Notes under the pieces: generated by a model
The model's input: the letters and a program-made list of their open reading frames with translations, nothing else
What the model was told of the DNA's origin: nothing
Databases searched by the model: none
Part shown: positions 928-51,686 of the stretch, piece after piece
Numbering within the stretch: the stretch's first letter is position 1
Layout: each line of letters opens with the position of its first letter
Source: a virus
Direction: 5' to 3' (one strand)
IMG/VR virus record: IMGVR_UViG_3300034407_003683
Span: 33,902-97,901 of that record
Length of the DNA: 64,000 nucleotides
Program-made: the position numbers and the translations under genes

Positions 928-1615
928 TTTTAATTCGCTTTTTCACCCAGAAATATCATGCGCTTGGCCTAAATGGCCAAAATTGTTAGCAAATAAATTA
1001 GATATGGATTTAATCAATTTAGCTAATTCAGGTGCTGGTAATGAATACATATATAGTACTCTTATTGACAAAATATCTGAAATTAATCCAAAAAATATAG
1101 GGTTAACTATTGCAGCATGGTCACAATCACAGCGCTGTGACTATGAAATAAGAGATACTTCCCGATGGCTACATGAAAGAATTGACGAAAAAGGTGACAT
1201 ACATTATTTTGTTAGAAAAAGTTTAAGATATTATTATAGTTTTCAATTATTATGCGAAAGACTAGATATTCCATATAAGCAAATGCAAATGATAGAATTA
1301 TTTGATGATTATCTTAATGGGTTAAAAGGGTTGCCCGGAAAAAATAATGAAAGAACTATATTATATCCAAAAAATAAATCTATATCTCGAGATAAAGTGA
1401 ATGCGTCGTTTTGCACTCATTCAATATTTGACAAAATAGATGATAATATGTTTTTAGGTTGGCCAATCTTACCCGAGTTAAATGGATATAATATACAAAA
1501 CAAAGTAACAGATAACTCTAGATTAAGGCATATTTTTTCTCTTTCTGAATTAGATAGCCACCCAAATAAAAAAGGTCATGAAATGATAGCGGAATTTATA
1601 TATGAAAATCTTTAG
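881..1615 (+). CDS. SGNH/GDSL-type hydrolase-like protein
   Basis: 244 residues. Block I is GCSFT near residue 9 (putative nucleophile Ser11), an NSGAGNEY segment near residue 48 fits the block with the oxyanion Gly/Asn, and SHPNKKGHEMIA near the C-terminus supplies the His of block V. SGNH enzymes hydrolyse esters, often acetyl groups on carbohydrates, or act as O-acetyl transferases. Its place between a glycosyltransferase-like gene and a carbamoyltransferase suggests editing of an acyl group on a glycan (inference). It starts inside the previous gene and ends inside the next, so translation is probably coupled. Confidence 0.7.
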   Translation: MKKILLVSGCSFTTDNFNSLFHPEISCAWPKWPKLLANKLDMDLINLANSGAGNEYIYSTLIDKISEINPKNIGLTIAAWSQSQRCDYEIRDTSRWLHERIDEKGDIHYFVRKSLRYYYSFQLLCERLDIPYKQMQMIELFDDYLNGLKGLPGKNNERTILYPKNKSISRDKVNASFCTHSIFDKIDDNMFLGWPILPELNGYNIQNKVTDNSRLRHIFSLSELDSHPNKKGHEMIAEFIYENL

Positions 1616-3086: not shown

Positions 3087-3409
3087 AATATATAAATCCA
3101 CAATGCGTAAGCTTCTCTTATAATGAAAATGGAAAAAAAATATACAAATCTCCATACGGATGGTGTAAAGGTATTGCTTACTGTACTGATGGATTTTTAT
3201 TACCATGTTGTTGGTGTGATCAAACAAATCTTTATGAAGATTTTAAAAATTTAGGTTTTTATAATGAAAATTTAAAATTAGAAAATAATGATAGTATAGA
3301 AGATATATTACTTTCAGAAACATGGAAAAATTTTATCCATGTTATATTAAGCACTCCCCATTTAGCCCCTCGAGTTTGTAAAAAGAAATGTGGTATATAT
3401 GAGGGATAA
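3083..3409 (+). CDS. stand-alone SPASM/twitch-like Fe-S protein
   Basis: 108 residues with clustered cysteines (C28, C34, C42, C43, C45 and C99, C103). The segment GIAYCTDGFLLPCCWCDQ and the C-terminal CKKKC resemble auxiliary iron-sulfur SPASM/twitch domains, which normally follow a radical SAM core in one chain. Here the domain is its own gene, and a radical SAM core is encoded immediately downstream with 20 nt overlap. The likely role is substrate or cluster partner of that enzyme (inference). It starts 4 nt inside the carbamoyltransferase gene. Confidence 0.6.
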   Translation: MKYINPQCVSFSYNENGKKIYKSPYGWCKGIAYCTDGFLLPCCWCDQTNLYEDFKNLGFYNENLKLENNDSIEDILLSETWKNFIHVILSTPHLAPRVCKKKCGIYEG

Positions 3410-4061
3410 TGATTATTATCGATATATGCTACATCAAAAAGAAAATGCTAGCATTAATATTGATACGTCTAATAAGTGCATTCTAGAATGTCCTGGTTGC
3501 CAACGAAATGATTTAAGAAATAAAGATAAAATAAAAAATGGCAATATTATGCCTATATCTGATTTTATAAAAATTGTAGAATATTACGATAATATAAACT
3601 TATGCGGTCAAATATCAGATCCAGTTTATTATAGACATTTTAATGAATTTTTAGATATTACAAAAGAATATCCGACTAAAACTTTTAAAATAGCCACCGC
3701 GGCTCATCAAAAAAATTTACAATGGTATAAAAATGCATTTAATAGACATAATAATAATGTTCAATGGATTTTTGGTTTAGACGGTTTACCCAATACTAGT
3801 TTTTTATATAGAATAAAACAGAATAGTCAATTAATATTTGATGCCATGATATTAGGCACAAAATTAAATAAAAAAATTTCATGGCAATTTATAGTTTTTG
3901 ATTATAATAAACATCAAATTGAAGAAGCAAAAAAGATAGCAAAGGAAAATGATATAAGATTTATATTAACAATATCTGATAGAAATAGAAATAGATCAGA
4001 TAGTCCAGAAGAATATAAAAAAAAATATAAGATAAAAAATACAAAAAGAATTATAACATGA
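3399..4061 (+). CDS. short radical SAM protein (core domain)
   Basis: About 220 residues. The CX3CX2C motif CILECPGC is near residues 27-34 and would bind the [4Fe-4S] cluster that cleaves S-adenosylmethionine. The ATG at 3399 is preferred; a GTG at 3390 is an alternative that adds three residues. The chain ends after the partial TIM barrel and has no auxiliary cysteines of its own; the upstream 108-residue protein carries them. Probable role: radical modification of a sugar or peptide in the glycan cassette. The substrate cannot be read from sequence. Confidence 0.75.
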   Translation: MRDNDYYRYMLHQKENASINIDTSNKCILECPGCQRNDLRNKDKIKNGNIMPISDFIKIVEYYDNINLCGQISDPVYYRHFNEFLDITKEYPTKTFKIATAAHQKNLQWYKNAFNRHNNNVQWIFGLDGLPNTSFLYRIKQNSQLIFDAMILGTKLNKKISWQFIVFDYNKHQIEEAKKIAKENDIRFILTISDRNRNRSDSPEEYKKKYKIKNTKRIIT

Positions 4062-4762
4062 ATATTATATGTGTTAAATGGGGTGATAAGTTTAATCATG
4101 AGCATGTTAATAGGCTCTATAAGATGATACTTAAAAATATAAAAGATGATTTTACATTTGTGTGTTACACAGAAAATCCAAATAATCTACACCCGGATAT
4201 TAAAACTATTCCACTTGATCTCAATTTAAATCTAGAAAATTGGTGGTGGAAACTTACACTCTTTAAACATAAAACGGATGAAGTTAATATCTTTTTTGAT
4301 CTTGATGTAGTAATTCAAAATGATATTACACATCTTAAAGATCTTTGTGTAGAAGATATGTTGTATATGATAAAAGCATATTGGAAAACATATCCTTTAA
4401 CTGAATTTGATACCAATCTAAACTCTTCTGTTATGATATGGAAAGGTGATTTATCTGATCTTTGGATTAAATTTGAAAAAGATCAAGATTATTATATGCT
4501 CAAATATAATGGTATAGATTCTTATTTAGATCATGATCAACATGATAAACTACTTTACATTCCGAAAGGTGAAGTTTATTCTAGGTTATATGGTATAGAT
4601 GAGAATAACTATTGGAAAGTTGGCACAGAATTTAAAAATTATTTCTATTCAGAAAAATATAATATATGCATTTTTAATGGTTGGCGTAGGAAAACCGATA
4701 AGATTAATAACAAATATTTACTAGATAATAATGGATACGAAGGCTTTGAACAATATTATTGA
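4058..4762 (+). CDS. GT-A type glycosyltransferase
   Basis: 234 residues. The nucleotide-sugar/metal motif FFDLDVVIQND (DxD) lies near residue 80 after a GT8-like N-terminal region (NIICVKWGDKF). The WWWKLTLFKH stretch just before it is typical of phage and host enzymes that track a sugar donor. It starts 4 nt inside the radical SAM gene and overlaps the next gene by 32 nt. Donor and acceptor are unknown. Confidence 0.75.
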   Translation: MNIICVKWGDKFNHEHVNRLYKMILKNIKDDFTFVCYTENPNNLHPDIKTIPLDLNLNLENWWWKLTLFKHKTDEVNIFFDLDVVIQNDITHLKDLCVEDMLYMIKAYWKTYPLTEFDTNLNSSVMIWKGDLSDLWIKFEKDQDYYMLKYNGIDSYLDHDQHDKLLYIPKGEVYSRLYGIDENNYWKVGTEFKNYFYSEKYNICIFNGWRRKTDKINNKYLLDNNGYEGFEQYY

Positions 4763-5363
4763 TCCAATATATTGGAAAGTTTTATGGAATGCTGCTAATG
4801 CAGGCTACGACATGAAACAAATGCTTGACAGTTTGTCTCCTAATCAAATTAAATCTAAAGTATGGTTAGTTGAAATGTTAAGTATATGTGCAATAAAAAA
4901 TCCATCTATTCAATTATATGGTGGGTGGAATGGATTTCCTCTTATTGACTTGTTAAGAGAAGAATTCAAAATTTCATTATTAGAAAATATTGATTTAGAT
5001 GAATCAGCGCTGAAGGTCTATAAAAATTTTATTAACAAAAAACAACTCAAAACTAGTGTATATAGAGCAAGACATGGAGATGCGTGTGAGCCATATAAAG
5101 TTGATAAGGAAATAGATATTGTAATTAATACTTCATCTGAACATATGCCAGATTTACCAGAACTTATAAAAAGTAAAAACTATAAAAAATCTTGTATATT
5201 TGCGTTACAGAGTAATAATATGTTTTACGTTAAAGATCATATTAATTGTGTAAATAGTAAAGAAGAATTAGAAACAAAATCTAAATTATCTAGAATATTG
5301 TATTCTGGTACATATGTAATGCCAAATGGATATGAAAGATATATGGTAATAGGCAATGTCTAA
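4731..5363 (+). CDS. class I SAM-dependent methyltransferase-like protein
   Basis: 210 residues. A glycine-rich strand-loop (LYGGWNGFPLIDLL) is followed by an acidic strand (LLENIDLDESAL) and the segment IDIVINTSSEHMPDL, then FALQSNNMF and HINCVNS. This order matches a methyltransferase family common in T4-like marine phages. The substrate is not known; the operon position suggests a glycan or small molecule. It overlaps the neighbouring genes on both sides (32 nt and 8 nt). Confidence 0.65.
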   Translation: MDTKALNNIIDPIYWKVLWNAANAGYDMKQMLDSLSPNQIKSKVWLVEMLSICAIKNPSIQLYGGWNGFPLIDLLREEFKISLLENIDLDESALKVYKNFINKKQLKTSVYRARHGDACEPYKVDKEIDIVINTSSEHMPDLPELIKSKNYKKSCIFALQSNNMFYVKDHINCVNSKEELETKSKLSRILYSGTYVMPNGYERYMVIGNV

Positions 5364-6261
5364 AGTTATTTTTAGTTTATATATTGACATCCCGGAAAAT
5401 GAATTAGACGAACAGTCTGCTCATTGGGGATCAAACATATCAAAAACTCTTCATACGAAAATACAATTAAAAGATAATTATAAATGGCTTATAGAGTCTC
5501 AACAAAGATATGCCAACTATATTGGTGTTGAGTATAAACACTATACATATGATTCTGCTTATATAAAATATAAAGAATGGTTTAATTTAAATTATCCAGA
5601 GGTTACGTCATATAACATTGTTAATTTTTATAAACTTAAATTATTATATAATTTAGCAAAAGACTATGATGAAATATTATATCTAGATCTAGATGTTATT
5701 CCAGTTTCAACCGATAACTTTTTTAAAACTTGGGATTTATCACAAGGTATTGCTATTATGAGTGGTACAGCAGAAAGTCAAAAAGATATTGAAACTGATA
5801 ATAGAGAACTTTTAAGAATTAAATATACGAATAATAGTAATAGATCGCCAATCGCAAAGTATTGGAATGCAAAAGCTATGCTTTTAGAAAAAGGATATAC
5901 ATGTGAATCAACAGTATTTAATACTGGAATTGTTGGAGCATCTCAAAAATGGCTTAAAGCTTTAGACTATTTTGGTGACTTTAGAAATATAATAGATTAT
6001 ATGACGCAGCTAAAAACAGATGATGGATTTTATCCAGAACAGATTCAAAGCTTATTTGGATATGATAATGAAACAATATGGGCATACAAAACACTAAGTA
6101 AAGATGTACCATGGCAAAAGCTAACACCAGATTGGCATTGTTTTATGGATAAATGGAGTTATATTCCATCAAATACTAAACTAGTTCATTGTATCAATAA
6201 AGATTTTAAGTATGTAAGAGATTGGTATGAAAAGAATAATATTCTCAATCTTTTCAAATAA
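5356..6261 (+). CDS. GT-A type glycosyltransferase
   Basis: 301 residues. The motif YLDLDVIPVS near residue 113 is the DxD nucleotide-sugar site, and FNTGIVGAS near residue 192 is the usual acceptor-side loop of this fold. It is related to the next gene product (YFDLDVIPNT, INTGIIGGN), so the pair probably arose by duplication. They overlap by 35 nt. Confidence 0.75.
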   Translation: MSKVIFSLYIDIPENELDEQSAHWGSNISKTLHTKIQLKDNYKWLIESQQRYANYIGVEYKHYTYDSAYIKYKEWFNLNYPEVTSYNIVNFYKLKLLYNLAKDYDEILYLDLDVIPVSTDNFFKTWDLSQGIAIMSGTAESQKDIETDNRELLRIKYTNNSNRSPIAKYWNAKAMLLEKGYTCESTVFNTGIVGASQKWLKALDYFGDFRNIIDYMTQLKTDDGFYPEQIQSLFGYDNETIWAYKTLSKDVPWQKLTPDWHCFMDKWSYIPSNTKLVHCINKDFKYVRDWYEKNNILNLFK

Positions 6262-7003
6262 AGTAGAGAAAAATCACCAGTCAACCGGCGATTTTAAAAT
6301 ATCTCAATTTATAAAATATAAAGATTCTTTAGTTAAATCGCAAAAGGCGTATGCACAAATTTGTAATGCTGATTACGAATTATTTGAAGTATCAGAAACG
6401 CTGTATGATAAAATTCAATTTGACAAACTTTATAAAATGGAAGAGTTAACTCAATATTATGATGAAGTTCTTTATTTTGATTTAGATGTCATTCCTAATA
6501 CAAATGAAAGTTTTTTTAAATCTAATGATTTAAATTCCATTTGTGCATATTCATTTGAAAGAACGTTACAATCAAATGTTCTACAAAGAAAAATATCAGA
6601 AAATGATTTTGATAAAATGAATGTATTTTCAAAAGGCTGTTGTAAAAAATCTATGCTATTACTTGAAGACATAAATTCTGATTATAAAGTAATTAACACA
6701 GGTATTATTGGAGGTAATAAATACTCTATAGATGCTTTATCATTTGATAAGCGATTAGAAAGTACCTATGATATTTACAATCAAACAATTACTGATAATC
6801 TTTATCCTATAGAAATTTCTAGAAACTGGAGACCTAATAATGAAGTGTTTATTACATATATGATAGAAAAATACAAAGTTCCATTTATTAATATTGGTAT
6901 TCAGTGGAATTTTATAATTGACGATATATATCCAAATGTCTCAGAAGCGGGTAAATTAATACATGTAGTGCATAAGGATTTTGGTAAAATATATGACAAA
7001 TAA
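6227..7003 (+). CDS. GT-A type glycosyltransferase, paralogue of the previous gene
   Basis: 258 residues with YFDLDVIPNT near residue 83 and VINTGIIGGN near residue 154. The same motifs in the same order are in the upstream product. The C-terminal LIHVVHKDF matches LVHCINKDF upstream. The start ATG at 6227 lies inside the upstream gene, consistent with coupled translation. Confidence 0.75.
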   Translation: MKRIIFSIFSNKVEKNHQSTGDFKISQFIKYKDSLVKSQKAYAQICNADYELFEVSETLYDKIQFDKLYKMEELTQYYDEVLYFDLDVIPNTNESFFKSNDLNSICAYSFERTLQSNVLQRKISENDFDKMNVFSKGCCKKSMLLLEDINSDYKVINTGIIGGNKYSIDALSFDKRLESTYDIYNQTITDNLYPIEISRNWRPNNEVFITYMIEKYKVPFINIGIQWNFIIDDIYPNVSEAGKLIHVVHKDFGKIYDK

Positions 7004-8201
7004 AAGAATAAAAAAACTTGAAACTATAGCAGATATCGTTTCAAAATTACCCTCTTATTGTTCTGCTGCATTTACTGAAATGTATGTAGACAATAATGGT
7101 CAATATAGATTATGCTGTCATGCTAAACCAAATCCAGTACTTAAACAATATACTAGTGATTCCATTTTACCATTTGAATATTTTTTATCAAAAGAAATGG
7201 AAAATATTCGTGACTCAATGCTTGAAGGAAAACATATCCCAGATTGTGAAAAATGTAATTTGTTGGAAAAATATGGAAAATATTCATATAGACATAAATA
7301 CATTGCGCGAGACGGGTTTATAACAGATATACAAGAAAAAACAATTAATCTAAAATTAAGAATTTCAGGATCATTCTGTAACCTTGCATGCTATATGTGC
7401 AATCCAGTAAATTCTACTACAAAGAGAAATGAATTAAATAAAATATTTGACATTGATAATACATTAAATGTATTTACTACAGGTATGAAAAATGCTAAAA
7501 GTGTTAAACATGCGCAGTGGAATGATATTGTAACTAATATATTAGAAAATATTCACCTCATTAAAATAATTCATATGACTGGTGGGGAAACTTTACAACT
7601 TCCTAAATATTGGGAATTTTTGGATCTTATTCCAGATAAACATGCAAAGGAATTAATACTTACACATGATACTAATTTAACAAAGATTACATATAATAAT
7701 CGCCATGTTTCAGATAATGCAAAGAGATTTAAATCATTTAATTTAAGTATTTCATGTGATCATATATTAGATAAATTATCTTGGATCAGATATCCAATTA
7801 ACGTAGAAGAATTTGAGAATAATTTACAAGAAATAATATTAGATAAGAATATTAATAAAAACATTAATTGTACGGTTTCAATATTAAATATTGATGACTT
7901 ATTTGAAATTAGAGACTACTATAAAAATAAATTTAAAGTTGATGTTTTATTTGAATGTATGGTTGTAAGCCCAAAAGAATTATCAATTTCTAATTTGCCA
8001 GAAAAACTTAAAGATGTATATAAAGAAAAATATAAAAATGATTTTGAATTTATATTAGCAGAGCTTAATAAACCAGCAGATCTAAAATTATTTGATAAAG
8101 GTCTAAAGTACTGTGATAAATTGTCAGCTCACCGACAATTTAATTTTAGAGTTCTATGGAAAGATTGGCTAGAAAAAGTTACGACTTATAAAGATCAATA
8201 G
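6993..8201 (+). CDS. radical SAM protein with N-terminal twitch/SPASM-like cysteines
   Basis: About 402 residues from the ATG at 6993 (a TTG at 6981 would add four). The radical SAM motif CNLACYMC is at residues 129-136. Cysteines at 23, 41, 42, 85 and 88 precede it and resemble a twitch auxiliary cluster site placed N-terminal to the core. TGGETLQLPKYWEFLD follows, as in this family. Such twitch-type radical SAM proteins are frequent in T4-like marine phages, but their reaction is unknown. It is the last gene of the plus-strand cassette. Its 3' end overlaps the convergent minus-strand gene by 23 nt with no visible terminator. Confidence 0.8.
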   Translation: MTNKRIKKLETIADIVSKLPSYCSAAFTEMYVDNNGQYRLCCHAKPNPVLKQYTSDSILPFEYFLSKEMENIRDSMLEGKHIPDCEKCNLLEKYGKYSYRHKYIARDGFITDIQEKTINLKLRISGSFCNLACYMCNPVNSTTKRNELNKIFDIDNTLNVFTTGMKNAKSVKHAQWNDIVTNILENIHLIKIIHMTGGETLQLPKYWEFLDLIPDKHAKELILTHDTNLTKITYNNRHVSDNAKRFKSFNLSISCDHILDKLSWIRYPINVEEFENNLQEIILDKNINKNINCTVSILNIDDLFEIRDYYKNKFKVDVLFECMVVSPKELSISNLPEKLKDVYKEKYKNDFEFILAELNKPADLKLFDKGLKYCDKLSAHRQFNFRVLWKDWLEKVTTYKDQ

Positions 8202-10380: not shown

Positions 10381-10388
10381 TATTTATA
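10381..10388 (-). promoter_or_regulatory. T4-type late promoter
   Basis: TATAAATA on the minus strand, 22 bp before the ATG of the short Asp-Ser-repeat protein. It overlaps the last codons of the upstream fibre gene. Confidence 0.65.
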
Positions 10389-40758: not shown

Positions 40759-41094
40759 TTAGAATGAAATTTTACCGCCTACGATTGTGGCAGTTTGCTT
40801 GAAGTCTGCATCGAAATCATTTTCCATGTATACAGAAATATTATCTGTTACCGCATACTTGATATCAATGTCTGATGAATTAACATTAAATGCGCCTTGA
40901 TCAGCAGTTGTATCAACCATCTTAGTAGTTACACCAAGAGTAAAATCACCAGAAGCGATTGATGGGCCAAAATAAATCTCGTTAACTTCTGTGTCGAGAT
41001 TACGCTCTACACCAACAGTTGTTGTGATTGTAGACTCAGCATTTGCTGCTGATGCGAAACCAGCGGCAAACAGTGCAACCATTACTTTTTTCAT
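40759..41094 (-). CDS. exported porin-like small beta-barrel protein
   Basis: 111 residues. Signal peptide MKKVMVALFAAGFASAANA, then a beta-rich chain (YFGPSIASGDFTLGVTTKMV, IDIKYAVTDNISVYME) ending in GGKISF. The C-terminal aromatic Phe is the outer-membrane-protein assembly signal. With only about 92 mature residues it has too few strands for a normal porin; it may oligomerise or interfere with host porins (inference). Confidence 0.65.
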   Translation of the reverse strand: MKKVMVALFAAGFASAANAESTITTTVGVERNLDTEVNEIYFGPSIASGDFTLGVTTKMVDTTADQGAFNVNSSDIDIKYAVTDNISVYMENDFDADFKQTATIVGGKISF

Positions 41095-43116: not shown

Positions 43117-43812
43117 TTATAGTATTCCATTAGCTGGTGGTCTCCAACCAATACTTTCATCTTTCATTGGTTTTTCCACAATCTCGCCGCGGCGGCCATA
43201 CTTTTCAATTACAATATTGTCTGGTAATTTAAACTTTAGATTATCATGCATATGGTGAAGAATAAATTCACACCGATGTTCCTTACCAGAACCATTAAAA
43301 TCTTTAAAGATATTTTGCCACAAAGGCCTCCAATTGTTTGTTAACCTATTGTTATTCATATTACCTCTATCAGAATTGATATAGATGTCAGTGTAACTTC
43401 TTAGATTAAAATCAAAAATTGAATCAAATCCATACATATGGATTCTATCTGCCTTTAGATGTTGAGCGGCAAAATATACTGCCATGTGACCACAATTTAG
43501 ATCGGTATAATTTGCAGCATATTTTGGCAATTTGGTATAGAACATTTTAATCTGATGTGACCTTTGCATATGGAATCCTGGATGTTTTTCCATATACACC
43601 TTAGGTCTTGCTCCTAGAATCCATTCTCCAGGCACATCAACATCACCCTTATGAATAGTCTTCATCATCTTAAAGTCCACCATGCACGATGCATAGCAAT
43701 TCTCAATAGGAAATGGTGCTTTATTACACGCTAGTTTTAATCCTTTTCTAGGAGCTTCATTATAGAATACTGCGGAATCCCCATTACCCACCACATGTAC
43801 TGTCTTAGCCAC
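43117..43812 (-). CDS. sialyltransferase-like/DUF115-like glycan enzyme
   Basis: 231 residues. The opening VVGNGDSAVFYNEA and ACNKAPFPIENCYASCMVDF resemble the GNGPS-type nucleotide-sugar loop of Cst-like sialyltransferases and DUF115 proteins, and HMYGFDSIFDFNLRSYTD matches their second motif. Probable glycosyl transfer. It is the last gene of the minus-strand glycan operon and overlaps the preceding glycosyltransferase by 8 nt. Confidence 0.55.
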   Translation of the reverse strand: MAKTVHVVGNGDSAVFYNEAPRKGLKLACNKAPFPIENCYASCMVDFKMMKTIHKGDVDVPGEWILGARPKVYMEKHPGFHMQRSHQIKMFYTKLPKYAANYTDLNCGHMAVYFAAQHLKADRIHMYGFDSIFDFNLRSYTDIYINSDRGNMNNNRLTNNWRPLWQNIFKDFNGSGKEHRCEFILHHMHDNLKFKLPDNIVIEKYGRRGEIVEKPMKDESIGWRPPANGIL

Positions 43813-44488
43813 GTAGAGCCTCCATAATTTTCATTTTACCTCTAATCCTATCATTACCTTGTTCACCAGTCCAATGCATAATCTTTTTATTTGGACTATC
43901 TTCATTATCAGCTTCAACTTGTAGTCGTAACCAATTATATATGTTTGGTAGTTCGGCGATATAGGTAATCATAGTAATAGGGTTTAACATACTATGTAAC
44001 ACTTCTTGATCACCAACTGCTGGATTTCTTTTTACAGCTTCAGCCCATTGTTTTAGAATATCTGGTTTCTGATGAAAACCAACAACACCAGAATTGTGCC
44101 ATTGTTCATTACGCCGTAACAACCATGGTCTATCAATTGCCATTGTAAGTTTATTTGGTTGAATATATCTAAACATATTTTCAATATTACCTAGTATTTC
44201 ACAATCAGTATCAATCCAAAACACATTATGACCTGGTGCGGATAACATTGCAGCTGGTTTATGAAACCAACCTTTGTCATAGTTCTCATCACCCTTATTA
44301 ATATCCATGTAACAAAAAACACCAGCCCTATCATAGACACGTTTTTTCATTTCTTCTGACATACCAAAATTGGCAACTGCAATTGGTATGGTATTATGCT
44401 TAAAATAGTTATCTAAAAACCATGGCAATTGCCATTCAGTTTTTTTATCACATCCAGTAACAATTAATTTTTCGGGCATCTTAGGCAT
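43805..44488 (-). CDS. GT-A type glycosyltransferase
   Basis: 227 residues. VFWIDTDCEILGNIE holds a DTD nucleotide-sugar motif near residue 92, and HNSGVVGFHQ the acceptor-side loop. The alternative ATG three codons in is possible. Overlaps neighbours by 8 nt on each side. Confidence 0.75.
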   Translation of the reverse strand: MPKMPEKLIVTGCDKKTEWQLPWFLDNYFKHNTIPIAVANFGMSEEMKKRVYDRAGVFCYMDINKGDENYDKGWFHKPAAMLSAPGHNVFWIDTDCEILGNIENMFRYIQPNKLTMAIDRPWLLRRNEQWHNSGVVGFHQKPDILKQWAEAVKRNPAVGDQEVLHSMLNPITMITYIAELPNIYNWLRLQVEADNEDSPNKKIMHWTGEQGNDRIRGKMKIMEALRG

Positions 44489-45131
44489 TGATTATCTCAT
44501 ATCCATCTTTATAATTGTGTTTTGCGATACAGCCGTCTTCTTTCTGAATAGTAGTAAAACTATCCACGGCCATACAAACCCAAGGATAATATTCTTGCAA
44601 CCATGAGAAGTTTTGAAGATTAATAAATGTATCAGCCGGTGCGGCATTAATTAATGCTTTAGCAATAAACTTTTTTGCACCAACAGGATTAATCATATAA
44701 CCATGTGCACCACCAAAGTATTGTTTCTGAACTAGTCCATCAACTCCAAGCTTTATTGGTGTATTAAATTTACCATATGATGGTTTTGAGAATGTCATAC
44801 ATCCATCAAATTTCTCATTTACTGGGACTGGGCCGGTAATAACAGCATCATGCTCAAAGACTACAATTGTCTCATCATTTTCAACTGCCATCTCCCATAG
44901 TGAATGATGTGATAAAAAGCACGACATACAATTTTCTAATCGAGAGTATCGTTCAACAAATCCGTGAGGAGAAATACCTTTCTTATGTAGAATTTCCCAT
45001 GGTTTGTCTTTAGGAGTATATGCTTTGTGCATATTAACTTCAAGTCCATATTTGGCGGCAGATTTAATACATCTTTCTGCCGCCTTTACAGACTGAGGAT
45101 TATCCATAATTGTAATTACAAAGGCTTTCAT
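44481..45131 (-). CDS. GT25-family glycosyltransferase
   Basis: 216 residues. LENCMSCFLSHHSLWEMAVE followed by TIVVFEHDAVI is the GT25 (LPS biosynthesis) pattern of SHxxxW then ExDA. GAHGYMINPVGAKKFI matches the C-terminal family block. Paralogous to the next upstream gene product. Typically adds hexoses to LPS-like glycans. Confidence 0.82.
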   Translation of the reverse strand: MKAFVITIMDNPQSVKAAERCIKSAAKYGLEVNMHKAYTPKDKPWEILHKKGISPHGFVERYSRLENCMSCFLSHHSLWEMAVENDETIVVFEHDAVITGPVPVNEKFDGCMTFSKPSYGKFNTPIKLGVDGLVQKQYFGGAHGYMINPVGAKKFIAKALINAAPADTFINLQNFSWLQEYYPWVCMAVDSFTTIQKEDGCIAKHNYKDGYEIINA

Positions 45132-45132
45132 A

Positions 45133-45831
45133 TCAATTCACCGTAGTTGATGGGAGTCCTTGAACTCTTGTAAAATAAAGTTTAGTCACACCCAAGTTAG
45201 GAATAATTTGCTTACACATTATTGCATCGTTTGGCCAAACACCATGTTCTTTGACTGCCTCAAGTAAGTTTTTAGCACCCTTAGGTTTAATTATATATGC
45301 AGAATTTCCGGCAAGGCCTTGAGGAATATTGAACTCATCAATATCTGGTACTGGTTGTACCCATGCTGGTTTACTCTGTACAATATCATGGAATTGATGC
45401 GCACGGCGCGTAGCTGACGCAGGAGAGTTAATGCCAATGATATCATAGTTACTCTTAAGGATAGATTTATAATCTAATTTTTCAATAAACAATGCATCAT
45501 GTTCCATAATAAGTATTGGTTTATCAATTGTGGTGCATTTATGCCACAACAACCAATGGCTCATTGCACATGCAATTCTACTATTCTTATTTGATGTCTG
45601 ATATGCAGACTTAACAAGACCAGTTCTAAGGTCTGTCTCTTTACCTTCCCATGGATATTTCCATTTAAGACCATTGCCGATCATAATAGTATGTGCCATA
45701 TCAGGTGTCACAGCATCAAATATATTAATATCAAAATTATTTTTTACTTTTTTTGACGATTTAATAAGGTTATTTGTTCCGACCTGTGATGTTTCACTAT
45801 TTGCTAATGTTATGGCATATGCATCTAACAT
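45133..45831 (-). CDS. GT25-like glycosyltransferase
   Basis: 232 residues from the ATG at 45831, which avoids overlap with the FkbM gene. ACAMSHWLLWHKC, ILIMEHDALF and NSAYIIKPKGAKNLLEAVKE parallel the downstream GT25 product. Donor and acceptor unknown. Confidence 0.75.
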   Translation of the reverse strand: MLDAYAITLANSETSQVGTNNLIKSSKKVKNNFDINIFDAVTPDMAHTIMIGNGLKWKYPWEGKETDLRTGLVKSAYQTSNKNSRIACAMSHWLLWHKCTTIDKPILIMEHDALFIEKLDYKSILKSNYDIIGINSPASATRRAHQFHDIVQSKPAWVQPVPDIDEFNIPQGLAGNSAYIIKPKGAKNLLEAVKEHGVWPNDAIMCKQIIPNLGVTKLYFTRVQGLPSTTVN

Positions 45832-45832
45832 A

Positions 45833-46519
45833 TTAGAAACCTCTGTATCTATTTTTATGCCCTGAAATTTTATGATTAATATCGGCCTTAATAAAGACAA
45901 TATCCATCTGATTTACAACATTATGTCTCATTGCAATGTGATCAACTCCAGTTGGAATAAAACCATTAGCATACATTGTGTCAATATATTTACTAAAATT
46001 TGGTGCACCTTTATTATATGGCATTATTGGCATTTCTAATATTGCTACTTTGGCATGTTCCATTGCATCAGAGCCACCATTAATAATATCTACCTCAGCA
46101 CCCTGTGTATCCATTTTAATAAAATCTGGTAAAGGTAGATTCTTTTCTTCAATTACTGTATTAAGTTTCTTTGTAGTTAACAGTACAGATTTACCTTCGG
46201 AATAATTAACAGTTAATTCCTTATAATAACTATCACCAGTACTTGCCTTACCACTATTAGCTAAAAAGAACTCCACTGTTCTATCATCTGCATCTGATAA
46301 TACCTGATGCATATACATATCATTATTTAATGAAATTGCACATTTATTATTTGGATTGGCTTCGAACATAATATATTTGGCATTAGGAATATGCTTTCGC
46401 CATTCCTGGGTCCATCTACCTACATTAGCACCAATATCATATACTACATCAATGTTATATCCAGCATTAATTACTTCATTAATAACCGTAGTACAAGGTC
46501 TTTCCATATTTCTAGCCAA
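45833..46519 (-). CDS. FkbM-family methyltransferase
   Basis: 228 residues. VVYDIGANVGRWTQEW is the SAM-binding loop, FEANPNNK the acidic strand, and DFIKMDTQGAEVDIINGG the FkbM signature. These enzymes O-methylate sugars or polyketides. In a glycan operon a sugar O-methyl cap is the simplest guess. Confidence 0.88.
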   Translation of the reverse strand: MARNMERPCTTVINEVINAGYNIDVVYDIGANVGRWTQEWRKHIPNAKYIMFEANPNNKCAISLNNDMYMHQVLSDADDRTVEFFLANSGKASTGDSYYKELTVNYSEGKSVLLTTKKLNTVIEEKNLPLPDFIKMDTQGAEVDIINGGSDAMEHAKVAILEMPIMPYNKGAPNFSKYIDTMYANGFIPTGVDHIAMRHNVVNQMDIVFIKADINHKISGHKNRYRGF

Positions 46520-46520
46520 T

Positions 46521-47222
46521 TTATTCTCCTATAATTCCGGCATTTACCAGATCAATATAATTTTCTTCTCTACTCTTAGGCTTGTGTCTGATGTGTATCA
46601 TATTAGCCTTTTCCGGATTTGGAAGATAGCTACTGTAATCCCATTTCTCATCCAAATATTTATCTAGTTTAAAGTTAGCTTTTACACACAGAACATGGAA
46701 GATACCTTCATCAACATACGGCCTAGGGCTAATCTGTTCAAATACTTTTCTCATGGCCGGATTAATTTGTGCCCTCATTAATTGTCTAAATTCTCTAGGC
46801 ATAACATAGATGGCACCAGACCACATAGGATAGTTTGGATTGCCCAATCTAGGAAACTCATTAATGAATGCAGGTAATTGTCTCTCACGGTGGATCTGAT
46901 CAAATGGTGCAATGCCTTTTGCTTCAAATACATTTTCGGTACAACTAGTTGTGACAAACTTATCGGTATCCAATACAACTACTGTATCATAATCATCATA
47001 TTCTTCATTAATTGCGGCACACTTCTGACACTGACCTCTTAAACCTTTTTGGAATGGTTCTCCATCCAAGAGCTTATATTCAGCACCAAGTTTATCGGCA
47101 TACTTTTTAATATTCTCTACACTCTTTTCTACGATGAATGGTAACCTACCACCACGAGATTCCATCTCTTGAATTACATTTGGCCGAAATGGGTGAAAGT
47201 GTTGTAGAATAATATTTTTCAT
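46521..47222 (-). CDS. GT-A type glycosyltransferase-like protein
   Basis: 233 residues from the ATG at 47222. NIILQHFHPFRPNV opens it, like the paralogue upstream. VVVLDTDKFV provides the DxD, and WSGAIYVMPREF the later loop. It has two extra Cys in GQCQKCAA. Likely donor-specific paralogue. Confidence 0.7.
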   Translation of the reverse strand: MKNIILQHFHPFRPNVIQEMESRGGRLPFIVEKSVENIKKYADKLGAEYKLLDGEPFQKGLRGQCQKCAAINEEYDDYDTVVVLDTDKFVTTSCTENVFEAKGIAPFDQIHRERQLPAFINEFPRLGNPNYPMWSGAIYVMPREFRQLMRAQINPAMRKVFEQISPRPYVDEGIFHVLCVKANFKLDKYLDEKWDYSSYLPNPEKANMIHIRHKPKSREENYIDLVNAGIIGE

Positions 47223-47869
47223 TTTATATAGTTCTTTCTGTTTCCACAATAATGTACTAGTGTAGCATCCGGAGCAGCTTCCTCTGGTAGGTCACAAAAT
47301 CTATCATGAGGAATTTCTAATTTTGTTTTATTATCTAAAATGCCTGATTGCACAATTAAATAATGCATTATGATCTCATCGTTTGGTGGTAATCCATCGG
47401 ATGACATACTATTATGTATTACGTCAGTATTCAATTCTTTTCTAAGATTGATTCGTTGTTCTCTAGTAAATTTAACACAATTGCCAAAGAACATAGGCTG
47501 TTGTCTGGTATAGAGTTTTGGCCATTTACGACCATTTTTACTACCACTGATATTTCGCATACCGACTTTATGAAGCCGTCCAATACCATTATGAATAAAA
47601 ATATTATCCAATTTACCAGTAAATAACATATCCATATCTAACATAAGTACATTATCATACTCATCATATTTTTCATTCAACATAAAGATTTTTTGAATTA
47701 CCAACCATGGCTTTGTTTTTGTATTGGGAAACCAGTCACCCATAGGAAATCCTTGAAGCAATTCATAATCTGCTCCAATTCTTCTAGAATAGTCTTCAAT
47801 ACTATTTTTACAAATATTTGCCCATCTAGGCATATCACCATGCCAATGCTGTAAAATAATATTTTTCAT
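47219..47869 (-). CDS. GT-A type glycosyltransferase-like protein
   Basis: 216 residues from the ATG at 47869 (one-base overlap with the upstream stop). NIILQHWHGDMPRW, LMLDMDMLFTG (DxD) and HYCGNRKN near the end. Same family as the downstream product (shared start NIILQH). Confidence 0.72.
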   Translation of the reverse strand: MKNIILQHWHGDMPRWANICKNSIEDYSRRIGADYELLQGFPMGDWFPNTKTKPWLVIQKIFMLNEKYDEYDNVLMLDMDMLFTGKLDNIFIHNGIGRLHKVGMRNISGSKNGRKWPKLYTRQQPMFFGNCVKFTREQRINLRKELNTDVIHNSMSSDGLPPNDEIIMHYLIVQSGILDNKTKLEIPHDRFCDLPEEAAPDATLVHYCGNRKNYIK

Positions 47870-48678
47870 TATAGATTCCATTCAGAAACAGGTAGATTTA
47901 CTACTCGTTTAATTTTATCGGCCGGCCAATTATCTGCACCATTTAATTGAATATGTACCATATTTGCATTTTTTCTTAAATCAATTACTGGCCTTGGTTG
48001 TTGTTTATTACCTGGATCAAAGTGGACAGAACTATTCCATTTATAGTCCATGGTCAACCAATCAAATGCACATACTTCTAACATTGCATGAAAATAAGGT
48101 TGATCACAAGTATAGAATGCCGGCAGATTAAATACTTTAGCCAAATTTACATATTTTGCAAAATCGTATAACTTTTCTCTTGCTTTTGCCAATCCAGCCT
48201 TAGAGTAAATAATAACACCGGTATTATAAACTTTAGGTAGACCATCGGTAGTACGTGGCATTTTTACTGGCCACTTTTTTTCAATAAGTGCTACCCATTT
48301 TTCATCATTGGCGTTATTAATTCCACCACCAATAGTATATTTTTTTCTGGTCAATGGTGCATTAATTTCTTCACAGATACCAATTTCAAAATTAGTACCA
48401 TAGAATTGTTCAAAAATGTTTTCATTACAAATATCTGTTGGTACAACATCGCAATCTGCATACATAATATAATCATATTCAGAATATTCATCTTCGAATA
48501 TTGGTTTAAATTTACCATAATTTGCAGAATAGGAACCTAAGTCTGTCCTAAATTTTGGATTGTGTTCGTACTTATGATCTGCCCCAATTCTTTTGGCATA
48601 CTGTTCCATGGCTTCAATACCAGCCATATTACCAGGTCGTTCAGTACCATCCCAACATTGATATATCAGTGTTTTCAT
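47869..48678 (-). CDS. GT-A type glycosyltransferase-like protein
   Basis: 269 residues from the ATG at 48678. TLIYQCWDGTERPG, YIMYADCDVVPTD (DCD), YNTGVIIYSK and FYTCDQPYFHAM. Same general family as the gene at 49820 (LIYQVAVG, IIDADIYI), so this operon holds several diverged copies. Confidence 0.75.
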   Translation of the reverse strand: MKTLIYQCWDGTERPGNMAGIEAMEQYAKRIGADHKYEHNPKFRTDLGSYSANYGKFKPIFEDEYSEYDYIMYADCDVVPTDICNENIFEQFYGTNFEIGICEEINAPLTRKKYTIGGGINNANDEKWVALIEKKWPVKMPRTTDGLPKVYNTGVIIYSKAGLAKAREKLYDFAKYVNLAKVFNLPAFYTCDQPYFHAMLEVCAFDWLTMDYKWNSSVHFDPGNKQQPRPVIDLRKNANMVHIQLNGADNWPADKIKRVVNLPVSEWNL

Positions 48679-48680
48679 AA

Positions 48681-49823
48681 TTACCACTTTGGTGATGTAA
48701 GAATATTATTTACATTTAGATTATCTTTCATCTTTTCTGCAATAAACTTTACATCATCAACCAAACCTTTATTTAATGTAATGGGTTTAAACCCTAGGCT
48801 TTTAAGCCCTTCATTACTCACAGATAGATCATTCTCTGCAAGTTCTTTACGAGGATTATCGACATACTTAATAGTACCACCATACGATTCTGCACACAAT
48901 TCGGCAAGTTGTTTTACAGACATAACCTCTGAAACTTGATTAAAGATACGAACCTTACCTTTACTTGGTGGATTTTGTACGGCCAGTGCAACACACCGAG
49001 CAGTATCTTCAATATGAATAAAGGCGCGTTTTTGACCACCAATACCATAGACAGTAATATCATTACCAGTTGCTGCCTGAGAGATAAAACGATTTAACAC
49101 AGTACCATAGATTCCATCATAATCAAATCTGTTGGTGAGCGTCTCATGTTTTCTAGTTTGTTCGGTTTGTGTTCCCCAAACAATACCTTGGTGTAGATCA
49201 GTAATTTTAAGCCCCCAGTTCTTATTATAGAATTGGAATAGCAATTGGTCCATAGATTTGGTCATATGATAAACACTACCAGGATTTGTAGGATATAGAA
49301 TATCAACATCCTTTTCGGTAGAGTTAATCTTTACATTCAGATAACCTTCTGGAATATCGCCAAACTCTTTCGAATAACCATATACACCCATTGTACCCAA
49401 ATGTACCAAGTGAATATCTGGATTTACTTCTACAATTGCAGAAAGAATATTATGTGTGTTGGTGATATTATTGTCAACCGTATAGCGCCGAGTTGTAGAA
49501 TTAATCATTGAGTATGGAGCAGCACGTTGTTCGGCAAAATGGATGATGGTATCTGGATAAAAAACAGAAATAATATCTAATAACTCATCATAATTATTAA
49601 TATCAGTATTGACGATATCAATGCTACCACCAATCATTGCGCGGGCAACTTTAATTCTCTGGCCAGGGTCACTAATATTGGTAAGTGAATTTGAACCTAG
49701 TTCTTTATCAATCTTCCGCCGAACAAGATTATCAATAATGAGAACATCATGACCTTCATCCAATAACTTTAACGATGTAGGCCAACCACAGAACCCATCA
49801 CCACCTAATACAATAATTCTCAT
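48681..49823 (-). CDS. UDP-sulfoquinovose synthase-like (SQD1/SqdB) SDR enzyme
   Basis: 380 residues. Extended SDR with GGDGFCG (7-13) and, throughout, SQD1-specific motifs: DNLVRRKIDKELG, HFAEQRAAPYSMI, LHQGIVWGTQT, NRFDYDGIYGTVLNRF, TVYGIGGQKRAFIHIEDT, RIFNQVSE, C-terminal SPKW. Catalytic Thr144, Tyr185, Lys189 correspond to SQD1 Thr145, Tyr182, Lys186. SQD1 converts UDP-glucose and sulfite to UDP-sulfoquinovose, used for sulfolipid and for S-layer glycans in some archaea. In this operon the sugar probably feeds the neighbouring glycosyltransferases (inference). Overlaps its upstream neighbour by 4 nt. Confidence 0.88.
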   Translation of the reverse strand: MRIIVLGGDGFCGWPTSLKLLDEGHDVLIIDNLVRRKIDKELGSNSLTNISDPGQRIKVARAMIGGSIDIVNTDINNYDELLDIISVFYPDTIIHFAEQRAAPYSMINSTTRRYTVDNNITNTHNILSAIVEVNPDIHLVHLGTMGVYGYSKEFGDIPEGYLNVKINSTEKDVDILYPTNPGSVYHMTKSMDQLLFQFYNKNWGLKITDLHQGIVWGTQTEQTRKHETLTNRFDYDGIYGTVLNRFISQAATGNDITVYGIGGQKRAFIHIEDTARCVALAVQNPPSKGKVRIFNQVSEVMSVKQLAELCAESYGGTIKYVDNPRKELAENDLSVSNEGLKSLGFKPITLNKGLVDDVKFIAEKMKDNLNVNNILTSPKW

Positions 49824-50614
49824 TCGTCTACTCCAATTTGTTTCATTAATTCTTTTACATCTTCACCGCGGTTTGGTAGTTTATCCTTTAGGAAAAAATG
49901 TACAAAATTTGCTTCTTTAATTTTACTATTATCTATTGCAGTATAAAGTGCGTTCCATTTCCAATCAAGCTTCTGCACGGTCATACCACACGTATTTACC
50001 CAGTAATTAAGTAGTGTTTGGTCTGTAGACCATTTCCAACCACCCATACCATCAACAAACTTTTTAAACTCTTCGCGGCGAATAAATTGTTCTGGTGTCT
50101 GTCCATTCAGATATTTTGCAAATGATTTATTCATTACCATCATTCCCATATTCATAAATGGGAATCCAGTTGCTTCATTATATTGCCAATTGATTTTTAA
50201 TTGACCATATTGCATTTTAGAATAATTGGAAATTTTTTGCACATACCATGGTAGAATAGGCATGGATGCTTCGACAACTCCACCAAAATCTGCTTCTGGT
50301 TTTAGGTCATCAAAAATATTTGGAGCATCTGTACGGATATAGATATCGGCATCAATAATAGCAATCTGATCGTATTGGTCAAAATATGAAAAGGCATTTT
50401 CCTTCTCATAGATTGGAAGGAATCCACCATGCTTTTCATATGACTCTTTACTACGATTTGTAACAAAGATATCTGGTTTAATTCTTAATTTTGGTATGGT
50501 CTGTACAATATGATCAATATTATGTTTTGCACAATATTCTGCACACGATTGGATACAGTGTTTATATAGTCTAGACTTTGCACCAACAGCAACTTGGTAA
50601 ATCAATCTTTTCAT
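49820..50614 (-). CDS. GT-A type glycosyltransferase-like protein
   Basis: 264 residues. LIYQVAVGAKSRL, IAIIDADIYIRTD (DxD) and FMNMGMMVMNK are the fold markers; WSTDQTLLNYW is the later acceptor-side block. First gene of the minus-strand glycan operon. No strong promoter was seen in the 40 bp upstream, so read-through from the 50.7-52.4 kb genes is likely. Confidence 0.75.
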   Translation of the reverse strand: MKRLIYQVAVGAKSRLYKHCIQSCAEYCAKHNIDHIVQTIPKLRIKPDIFVTNRSKESYEKHGGFLPIYEKENAFSYFDQYDQIAIIDADIYIRTDAPNIFDDLKPEADFGGVVEASMPILPWYVQKISNYSKMQYGQLKINWQYNEATGFPFMNMGMMVMNKSFAKYLNGQTPEQFIRREEFKKFVDGMGGWKWSTDQTLLNYWVNTCGMTVQKLDWKWNALYTAIDNSKIKEANFVHFFLKDKLPNRGEDVKELMKQIGVDE

Positions 50615-50654: not shown

Positions 50655-51122
50655 CTAGTTTGTTATCATAAATCTCAAATTCTCGTGATCAGGATAGTTC
50701 ACTACGACTGGACCTTCAGGACACTCATAGTCAATATGTGCCAATAGAATTGCTTCTCCTGGTTTAATCATATCTTTATGTTCTTGGTCTATTGTAAATG
50801 AGAAACCAAACTTATCAATCTTCTCACTTGCCGGACCACTGAACTTTGCTATACTTGGAATTGCTTTATGGACATGATATTTACTGTCTTTGACTTCAAG
50901 TCTGAATCCAGTTACCTTACAATCATCTCTATGCTTTTCTCTTGCAACTACAACATCAAAAGATCCATTGACTGATGCATTACTTACTTGAAAATGCTCT
51001 GGTGCCCATGTTAAGATATCCTTTGACTGCAGTTTATCCCACAACGTATAACCACCACCAACAGCACCAAATGAAGCAGTAACAATGGCAATGATCTTTG
51101 GTATATTTTCTAGATCCATCAT
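50655..51122 (-). CDS. membrane-anchored protein
   Basis: 155 residues. One membrane segment at about residues 8-28 (PKIIAIVTASFGAVGGGYTL), then a beta-rich domain of about 115 residues (FQVSNASVNGSFDVVVAREK, LAHIDYECPEGPVVV). Its start overlaps the EF-hand protein gene by 4 nt. Unknown; probably envelope-facing. Confidence 0.55.
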   Translation of the reverse strand: MMDLENIPKIIAIVTASFGAVGGGYTLWDKLQSKDILTWAPEHFQVSNASVNGSFDVVVAREKHRDDCKVTGFRLEVKDSKYHVHKAIPSIAKFSGPASEKIDKFGFSFTIDQEHKDMIKPGEAILLAHIDYECPEGPVVVNYPDHENLRFMITN

Positions 51123-51487
51123 TTCTTAGGAGCCGCCGTTTTACCTTTGACTGCATCAGCACCAAAAAAGGCAGCAACCAAAACAGAAATAGAGACAAAA
51201 TAAGTTGGAGCAATATCACTAATAAGTTGTGCTGCTTTATCCTGCCCCATAATCGTAGTGATTAAGATAATGGCAGGATATAGTAACATACCAAATAATG
51301 CAAACCAAGTCATTTTTCTCATAGCATCTCTTTGTGCATCTGCATCTTCAAGTTCTTTTCTTTTAAACTCGAGATGCATATCAAGCTCTTCTGCAGTGAT
51401 ATGCCCATCGCCATTGGTATCAGCATCGTCTAGACCATCAATAGTCTTCCTTGCTGCTGCAATTGCTTCCTTCGTCGGCTCTGTCAT
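51119..51487 (-). CDS. EF-hand protein with two membrane segments
   Basis: 122 residues from the ATG at 51487. The loop DTNGDGHITAEE near residue 24 fits EF-hand ligand spacing (D, N, D, G, I, E), so Ca2+ binding is likely. Two membrane segments follow (WFALFGMLLYPAIILITTIM and APTYFVSISVLVAAFFGADA). Size and topology would also fit a holin-like protein; there is no proof. Confidence 0.65.
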   Translation of the reverse strand: MTEPTKEAIAAARKTIDGLDDADTNGDGHITAEELDMHLEFKRKELEDADAQRDAMRKMTWFALFGMLLYPAIILITTIMGQDKAAQLISDIAPTYFVSISVLVAAFFGADAVKGKTAAPKK

Positions 51488-51686
51488 TATAGTACTCCGT
51501 TGTGATTGCCTCTGCAATTTGCAGAGCTTTTGTGAATCCATCACGAAGTGAATTAGACTTATGCCCGTTCTCAATAAACCAATTAAGACTATTTATATCA
51601 GAACCCGAATATTCTTGAGGTATTTTAAAATCCTCAATAGTGTTTTCAAAGTCTGTTCTCATATTTAACAATTCAGCGATTTGCAT
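51438..51686 (-). CDS. small conserved-looking protein
   Basis: 82 residues from the ATG at 51686 (AGAGG upstream). TDFENTIEDFKIPQEYSGSD and LNWFIENGHKSNSLRDGF look coding. It overlaps the HAD gene by 14 nt and the EF-hand gene by 50 nt. Function unknown. Confidence 0.55.
   Translation of the reverse strand: MQIAELLNMRTDFENTIEDFKIPQEYSGSDINSLNWFIENGHKSNSLRDGFTKALQIAEAITTEYYNDRADEGSNCSSKEDY

What the first reader, a model, noticed from the sequence alone, without database searches (positions are those of the whole stretch)
48681..49823. Phage-encoded SQD1-type UDP-sulfoquinovose synthase
The protein has SQD1-specific motifs along its whole length and the Thr-Tyr-Lys triad. A sulfonated sugar nucleotide made by a phage, inside an operon of glycosyltransferases, suggests sulfoquinovose on a virion glycan or remodelling of host sulfolipid or surface sugar.
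Basis: partly seen in the sequence, partly recalled or inferred. Interest (0 to 1): 0.75.

Follow-up and report, generated by a model that had tools for sequence, protein, structure and literature searches.

The report
Phage sulfoquinovose synthase in glycosylation operon
A T4-like environmental phage carries a gene for the enzyme that makes the activated sulfonated sugar sulfoquinovose, sitting in a late-expressed, mix-and-match operon of sugar-attaching enzymes, so the phage probably decorates its own particles (or the dying cell's surface) with negatively charged sulfur sugars.

Summary
The ORF is real. It is on the minus strand (48681-49823, 380 aa), which the finding does not state. It belongs to the UDP-sulfoquinovose (UDP-SQ) synthase family. 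Its best PDB relative is Arabidopsis SQD1, and its AlphaFold model matches SQD1 at TM 0.97 and 1.3 Å. The Thr144/Tyr185/Lys189 triad and the equivalents of all five Agl3 residues whose Ala mutants are inactive are present.

It is not SQD1-type in the strict sense. It belongs to a 'TMGVYG/DLHQG' branch, which also contains the alphaproteobacterial SqdB of sqdBD operons. It scores below NCBI's UDP-SQ equivalog cut-off.

No isolated phage record holds a close relative, but about 43 IMG/VR contigs do. All six of their contigs tested encode T4-type Gp23.

Two context findings change the interpretation. The operon has a conserved T4-type late-promoter motif. It also has a conserved frame around a hypervariable cassette, where relatives carry sulfotransferases and other sugar enzymes instead of SqdB. 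No SqdX, SqdD, PAPS reductase or glycan exporter was found. The downstream glycosyltransferase (47869-48687) is linked to SqdB; the upstream one is not.

Best explanation: a swappable phage 'glycotype' locus that puts sulfoquinovose on a virion protein, less likely on host surface. Sulfolipid remodelling is unlikely. A viral UDP-SQ synthase was reported once before.

The parts
48681..49823 (-). SqdB-type UDP-sulfoquinovose synthase (380 aa), extended SDR; triad T144, Y185, K189; R100, H95, M145, H186 kept
49820..50614 (-). GT8-like retaining glycosyltransferase immediately upstream (4-nt overlap with sqdB); DxD D88/D90, NxG, DQ198-199, H239; conserved frame gene of the operon, mostly found without SqdB
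47869..48687 (-). Glycosyltransferase of the same family immediately downstream (7-nt overlap); linked to SqdB in 14 of 16 assessable loci; best candidate sulfoquinovosyltransferase
47219..47881 (-). Glycosyltransferase of the same sequence cluster (220 aa), in the variable cassette
46521..47249 (-). Glycosyltransferase of the same sequence cluster (242 aa from TTG; a shorter ATG start is likely), variable cassette
45833..46519 (-). FkbM-type methyltransferase (PF05050)
45133..45900 (-). GT25-type glycosyltransferase (PF01755), conserved frame
44481..45131 (-). second GT25-type glycosyltransferase (PF01755), conserved frame
43805..44488 (-). conserved frame gene of the operon, 227 aa; no Pfam match at E<=0.001; not identified further
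43117..43812 (-). conserved frame gene of the operon, 231 aa, no Pfam match
51119..51574 (-). first gene of the operon: protein with one canonical EF-hand loop (DTNGDGHITAEE) and two hydrophobic segments; probable ATG start at 51541
50655..51122 (-). 155-aa gene between the EF-hand gene and the upstream GT; almost unique to this virus
51590..51597 (-). T4-type late-promoter motif TATAAATA heading the operon; present near the start of the orthologous first gene in 15 of 20 relatives

Best explanation
The ORF encodes an active SqdB-type UDP-sulfoquinovose synthase. It would oxidise UDP-glucose at C4 with tightly bound NAD+, eliminate water across C5-C6, add host-derived sulfite at C6 and reduce C4 again, releasing UDP-SQ. 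It is the sugar-nucleotide supplier of a late phage operon of cytoplasmic glycosyltransferases, which builds a short glycan containing sulfoquinovose on a phage protein (tail, fibre or capsid). The downstream glycosyltransferase at 47869-48687 is the best candidate for transferring sulfoquinovose; the neighbouring GT8-like, GT25-like and FkbM enzymes extend or methylate the glycan. SqdB and its partner GTs form an exchangeable cassette inside a conserved frame, like a serotype locus. Shown here: homology, retained residues, predicted fold, purifying selection, operon layout, late-promoter motif, conserved frame with variable cassette. Inferred: catalysis, identity of the acceptor, GT assignment, virion as target.
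For: Enzyme: full-length matches to UDP-SQ synthases. The model fits SQD1 at TM 0.97 and 1.3 Å, against at most about 0.75 for GalE-type folds. The equivalents of the five Agl3 residues whose Ala mutants are dead (H95, R101, M145, Y182, K186; PMC4388408) are all present in the window protein. The TMGVYG branch contains SqdB followed directly by SqdD in 11 loci, including S. meliloti. That is the operon type whose sqdB deletion abolishes sulfolipid in R. sphaeroides (PMC11346425). The tree brackets the phage clade between SQD1 and these SqdB (99/95 for the phage clade with its bacterial relatives). dN/dS is 0.01-0.14 in the usable pairs. Glycan locus: genes overlap by 4-13 nt around sqdB. Relatives share a frame (GT49820, GT25a, GT25b, 43805, 43117) around a cassette of 3-7369 nt, which holds SqdB, PF03567 or PF17784 sulfotransferases, SDRs, a cytidylyltransferase, a DegT aminotransferase or FkbM methyltransferases. 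Late expression: 8 of 9 TATAAATA sites lie 5-33 nt upstream of a same-strand ORF, against 11.5% for letter permutations; one heads this operon and is conserved in 15 of 20 relatives. Cytoplasmic assembly: no transmembrane-like segments in any GT and no flippase or exporter in the island. Surface-glycan ancestry: the nearest bacterial relatives lie in capsule or surface-polysaccharide loci: L088 next to capsule-export genes, L072 next to two sulfotransferase-like genes, L074 among GTs.
Against: No activity data. V147 replaces a Glu whose Ala mutant in Agl3 kept only 12% of 5,6-dehydratase activity, although the sqdBD-operon SqdB have the same Val. The score is below NCBI's equivalog cut-off. 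No sulfite-generating gene (PF01507) was found in 11 virus records. The acceptor and the GT donor specificity are unknown. Late expression is inferred from a motif only.
Confidence: 0.6

Rival explanations
1. The enzyme makes UDP-SQ, but the glycan is put on the host's surface (LPS or capsule) during infection, for instance to mask receptors from other phages or to stop progeny re-adsorbing.
For: Nearest bacterial SqdB relatives sit in capsule or surface-polysaccharide loci. A variable glycotype cassette would fit receptor diversity. GT25 and GT8 families are typical LPS transferases.
Against: No undecaprenyl-phosphate primer, flippase, polymerase or ABC exporter was seen in the island; the GTs carry no transmembrane-like segments. 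The operon carries a late-promoter motif, which is late for exclusion.
Confidence: 0.22
2. The enzyme feeds host sulfolipid (SQDG) synthesis, replacing phospholipid to free phosphate for phage DNA.
For: The enzyme branch is that of SQDG-making sqdBD operons. sqdB is part of the phosphate-starvation response in S. meliloti (PMC10315480), and marine bacteria remodel lipids when P is scarce (PMC4796936). A PhoH gene lies nearby.
Against: No SqdD or SqdX relative was identified in the island. The adjacent GT shares only a DxD stretch with SqdD (24 columns, probability 19%). The phage clade is separate from the sqdBD clade. The gene sits in a cassette that alternates with sulfotransferases and other glycan enzymes.
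Confidence: 0.08
3. The protein has drifted to another sugar-nucleotide reaction, such as sulfite-free 5,6-dehydration giving UDP-glucose-5,6-ene, or epimerisation; the E to V and N to H changes mark a different function.
For: V147 and H211 differ from SQD1. The score is under the equivalog cut-off. UDP-SQ synthases make the 5,6-ene without sulfite (PMC8987622). No phage sulfite source was found.
Against: The same V/H pair is in S. meliloti and Rhodobacteraceae SqdB followed by SqdD. R100, M145, H186 and the rest of the conserved pocket are kept. One bacterial V-type gene is next to a sulfotransferase and a PAPS reductase, which makes sulfite.
Confidence: 0.1

Closest known systems
SQD1, UDP-sulfoquinovose synthase of Arabidopsis (PDB 1qrr, 1i24)
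   Same: Fold (TM 0.97, 42% identity), Thr-Tyr-Lys triad, Arg/His/Met pocket residues, full length
   Different: SQD1 has TMGEYG and DLNQG; the phage protein has TMGVYG and DLHQG and belongs to another branch; SQD1 serves sulfolipid
SqdB of the alphaproteobacterial sqdBDC operon (R. sphaeroides, S. meliloti type)
   Same: Same V/H branch, 53-56% identity, same expected reaction
   Different: The phage clade is a separate branch; no SqdD or SqdC beside it; glycan cassette rather than lipid operon
Agl3 of Sulfolobus acidocaldarius
   Same: UDP-SQ synthase used for protein glycans rather than lipid; all residues whose Ala mutants are inactive are retained in the phage protein
   Different: Archaeal branch with Glu147; makes S-layer N-glycan; direct sequence comparison with Agl3 not run here
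UDP-sulfoquinovose synthase of a Mu-like virus, Cariaco Basin (PMC7785012)
   Same: Virus-encoded putative UDP-SQ synthase, metagenomic
   Different: Mu-like phage, single case, read as an auxiliary metabolic gene for host N-glycosylation; here a T4-like lineage with a recurrent late operon
Capsid glycosyltransferase of chlorovirus PBCV-1 (PDB 2p6w, 2p72)
   Same: Virus GT-A fold similar to the GT model (TM 0.56/0.70); involved in glycosylation of the major capsid protein
   Different: Weak fold-level similarity only (14% identity); eukaryotic virus; no sulfonated sugar

Membership tests
UDP-sulfoquinovose synthase (EC 3.13.1.1) | Full-length similarity to SQD1 above all other SDR families | tested here: met
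   SQD1 318 bits, next GalE 47 bits; TM 0.97 vs at most about 0.75
UDP-sulfoquinovose synthase (EC 3.13.1.1) | SDR triad [ST]MG...YxxxK | tested here: met
   T144-M145-G146, Y185, K189; motif defined in PMC8987622
UDP-sulfoquinovose synthase (EC 3.13.1.1) | Residues inactive as Ala in Agl3 (H95, R101, M145, Y182, K186) | tested here: met
   present in the window as H95, R100, M145, Y185, K189; matched through the VxF.EQR, TMG and YHxxK motifs, Agl3 itself was not aligned
UDP-sulfoquinovose synthase (EC 3.13.1.1) | Glu after TMG (E148 in SQD1, E147 in Agl3) | tested here: not met
   V147; but 80 of 80 top bacterial homologues and SqdD-linked SqdB also have V, so it is a branch trait; Agl3 E147A keeps 12% activity
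NCBIfam NF041015 equivalog | Score at or above 575 bits | tested here: not met
   376 bits; six sampled bacterial V-type proteins also score 329-348
UDP-sulfoquinovose synthase (EC 3.13.1.1) | Turns UDP-glucose plus sulfite into UDP-SQ | not testable with these tools
   needs an enzyme assay
Sulfolipid (SQDG) operon sqdBD(C) or sqdB-sqdX | Acceptor transferase SqdD or SqdX next to sqdB | tested here: not met
   adjacent GT has no alignment to SqdD beyond DxD; no clear relative of SqdD or of the SqdX-like GT4 among nine island genes
Phage virion glycosylation locus | Multiple GTs plus sugar-nucleotide enzyme in one operon, expressed late | tested here: met
   late expression by promoter motif only
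Phage virion glycosylation locus | Glycan present on the virion | not testable with these tools
   needs virion glycoproteomics

The most novel reading that the evidence does not exclude
A lineage of T4-like phages carries a swappable late 'glycotype' locus that decorates virion proteins with sulfur-bearing sugars. Some members use sulfoquinovose made by their own SqdB; others use sulfotransferases in the same slot. This would be a serotype-like, negatively charged phage coat not described before.
Probability: 0.4. Interest if true: 0.8.

Novelty: new variant of a known kind. Interest (0 to 1): 0.55.

Why it matters
Sulfoquinovose is known from photosynthetic membrane lipids and a few archaeal glycans. 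Phage virions carrying it, through an exchangeable cassette, would add a sulfonated sugar to the known phage glycans. It would also link phage particle chemistry to the sulfur cycle and give a concrete test of why aquatic T4-like phages carry so many glycosyltransferases. Even if the target is the host surface, the locus shows serotype-like diversity on the phage side.

Tried and rejected
1) A different SDR family (GalE, RmlB, Gmd): rejected by profile, structure and tree. 2) Loss of the active-site Glu as a sign of lost function: rejected as a decisive argument, because 80 of 80 best bacterial relatives and SqdD-linked SqdB share V. 3) Upstream GT8-like gene as SqdD, the sulfolipid transferase: hhalign gave only the DxD stretch, and the gene is common without SqdB (50 of 63 loci with room lack it). 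4) Phage-encoded sulfite supply through PAPS reductase: none in 11 records. 5) Sigma-70 promoters and intrinsic terminators around the operon: no more than in shuffles. 6) TATAAATA count alone is below the chance mean; the signal is its placement. 7) Mutual exclusion of SqdB and sulfotransferases: not significant (5/14 versus 14/14, p=0.14), and the sample favours SqdB loci. 8) Long-branch Agrobacterium sequence L156 was dropped from the second tree. 9) Host: no firm call; the closest isolates by baseplate protein are only 30-40% identical.

Full report
OBSERVATION. The named interval holds one uninterrupted ORF of 380 codons on the minus strand; the finding does not give the strand. The window is part of a 97,901-base IMG/VR virus record with a single copy of the gene. 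The protein matches NCBIfam's UDP-sulfoquinovose synthase model end to end (E=1.8e-112; 376 bits against a cut-off of 575). By sequence its best solved relatives are Arabidopsis SQD1 structures (E about 6e-94 to 3e-93), with UDP-galactose epimerases far behind. AlphaFold2 on an alignment of 28 homologues gave pLDDT 88.9 and pTM 0.91; Foldseek placed the model on SQD1 at TM 0.97 and 1.3 Å, the next folds at about 0.63-0.75.

ACTIVE SITE. T144, Y185 and K189 form the triad. R100, M145, H186, Q212 and R232 are invariant or nearly so across phage and bacterial relatives. Agl3 mutagenesis found H95, R101, M145, Y182 and K186 indispensable and E147A reduced to 12% (PMC4388408). The phage protein has the first five and a Val at the sixth. 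All 80 best bacterial relatives have that Val, and nearly all loci checked pair it with the His that replaces SQD1's Asn208, so this is a branch trait.

WHICH BRANCH. V-type genes are followed by SqdD (GT8) in S. meliloti, Marinovum and nine Rhodobacteraceae-family genomes. That is the sqdBDC arrangement in which sqdB deletion abolishes SQDG in R. sphaeroides (PMC11346425); I did not read the R. sphaeroides protein itself. In Corynebacterium and Bacillaceae a GT4 resembling SqdX follows (judged by eye). A Nodosilinea genome holds both an SQD1-type gene (73% to SQD1) and a V-type gene. In a 73-row maximum-likelihood tree the phage proteins form a clade with Amylibacter L072, Rhodobacteraceae MAG L088 and two further viral contigs (99/95). 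Its sister is the rest of the V-type, including the sqdBD clade; SQD1 is outside. The phage clade is thus bracketed by enzymes with known function. L088 lies beside capsule-export genes, L072 beside two genes that look like Stf0-type sulfotransferases (by eye) and L074 among surface-sugar genes.

DISTRIBUTION. Among 50,697 phage records only distant SDRs of about 23-27% identity are found. IMG/VR gave 71 loci, about 43 of them at 65-75% identity. Six contigs of this clade carry the T4-type capsid protein Gp23. The baseplate protein's closest isolates are an unassigned Kyanoviridae phage (40%), Methylophilales phages and HTVC008M (32-34%), so this lineage has no close isolate. Pairs of viral sqdB show dN/dS 0.01-0.14. 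Other viral contigs carry V-type genes from elsewhere in the tree, so viruses have probably picked it up more than once.

THE OPERON. Genes from 51574 down to 43117 run in one direction with 4-13 nt overlaps around sqdB. They encode an EF-hand membrane-like protein, a small gene, a GT8-like enzyme, SqdB, three further GTs of the same cluster, an FkbM methyltransferase, two GT25 enzymes and two unidentified conserved proteins. The GT8-like model resembles GT-A retaining enzymes: UGGT, the PBCV-1 capsid glycosyltransferase and LgtC. TATAAATA, the T4 late-promoter core (established knowledge), occurs nine times in the window; eight lie 5-33 nt upstream of a same-strand ORF, against 11.5% for permuted octamers. 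One lies at 51590-51597 before the operon, and it is found near the orthologous gene in 15 of 20 relatives where 0.03 per locus is expected.

A VARIABLE CASSETTE. Loci retrieved with the upstream GT mostly lack SqdB: 50 of the 63 with enough sequence. The downstream GT at 47869 is found with SqdB in 14 of 16 assessable loci; this retrieval used patterns from the window itself, so it favours close relatives. In 47 distinct loci with both frame ends the stretch between upstream GT and GT25 ranges from 3 to 7369 nt. SqdB is in 19, a PF03567- or PF17784-like sulfotransferase in 19, both in 5 and neither in 14 (the sample was partly selected for SqdB, so the frequencies are not estimates). Other occupants include HAD-nucleotidyltransferase fusions, a cytidylyltransferase, a DegT aminotransferase, SDRs and FkbM methyltransferases. 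This looks like a serotype locus with fixed ends.

MECHANISM. The most likely reading is: host sulfite and UDP-glucose are turned into UDP-SQ by the phage enzyme late in infection. The cassette's GT (47869 best candidate) transfers sulfoquinovose, and the frame GTs extend or start the glycan. Lack of any exporter or lipid-carrier gene and of transmembrane-like segments in the GTs points to a cytoplasmic acceptor, hence a virion protein. Sulfite must come from the host, as no PAPS reductase was found in 11 virus records. Host-surface modification is the main rival; sulfolipid remodelling is weak because no SqdD or SqdX partner was identified.

NOVELTY. Virus-encoded UDP-SQ synthase has been noted once in the held literature, in a Mu-like virus (PMC7785012); searches for further reports found none. 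The library is partial. What seems new is a T4-like clade with its own SqdB branch, the late operon, and the frame-and-cassette arrangement in which sulfur-adding enzymes recur.

Noticed in passing
51119-51541 (minus): First gene of the operon encodes a canonical EF-hand calcium loop (DTNGDGHITAEE) followed by two hydrophobic segments; conserved in about 20 relatives; only a weak PHROG match of unknown function. A putative calcium-binding phage membrane protein.
   Followed up: partly
window-wide; TATAAATA at 10381, 19600, 22928, 30876, 30899, 31410, 51590, 55631: T4-type late-promoter core sits just upstream of ORFs in 8 of 9 cases although its total count is below the chance mean.
   Followed up: yes
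91-8201 (plus): Second modification island beside the tail-fibre genes: carbamoyltransferase (PF02543/PF16861), a radical-SAM protein (PF04055) and several proteins that look like glycosyltransferases.
   Followed up: partly
40759-41094 (minus): 111-aa protein with a signal-peptide-like start and porin-like repeats (MKKVMVALFAAGFASAANA...); possible phage-encoded small outer-membrane protein; no Pfam or PHROG match.
   Followed up: partly
L229:9409-10410 and L253:10691-11587: Other SDR sugar-nucleotide enzymes occupy the same cassette slot as SqdB in related phages.
   Followed up: partly
L157:6001-9764: On a Rhodobacteraceae plasmid a V-type SqdB homologue is followed by a sulfotransferase and a phosphoadenylyl-sulfate reductase, which makes sulfite.
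   Followed up: partly
L158 and L168 (one Nodosilinea genome): A cyanobacterium carries both an SQD1-type and a V-type (SqdB-branch) gene; the role of the second is unclear.
   Followed up: no
NCBIfam NF041015: The equivalog cut-off (575 bits) leaves out sampled V-type proteins (329-348 bits), so V-type SqdB in PLSDB records are mostly named only 'NAD-dependent epimerase/dehydratase'.
   Followed up: partly
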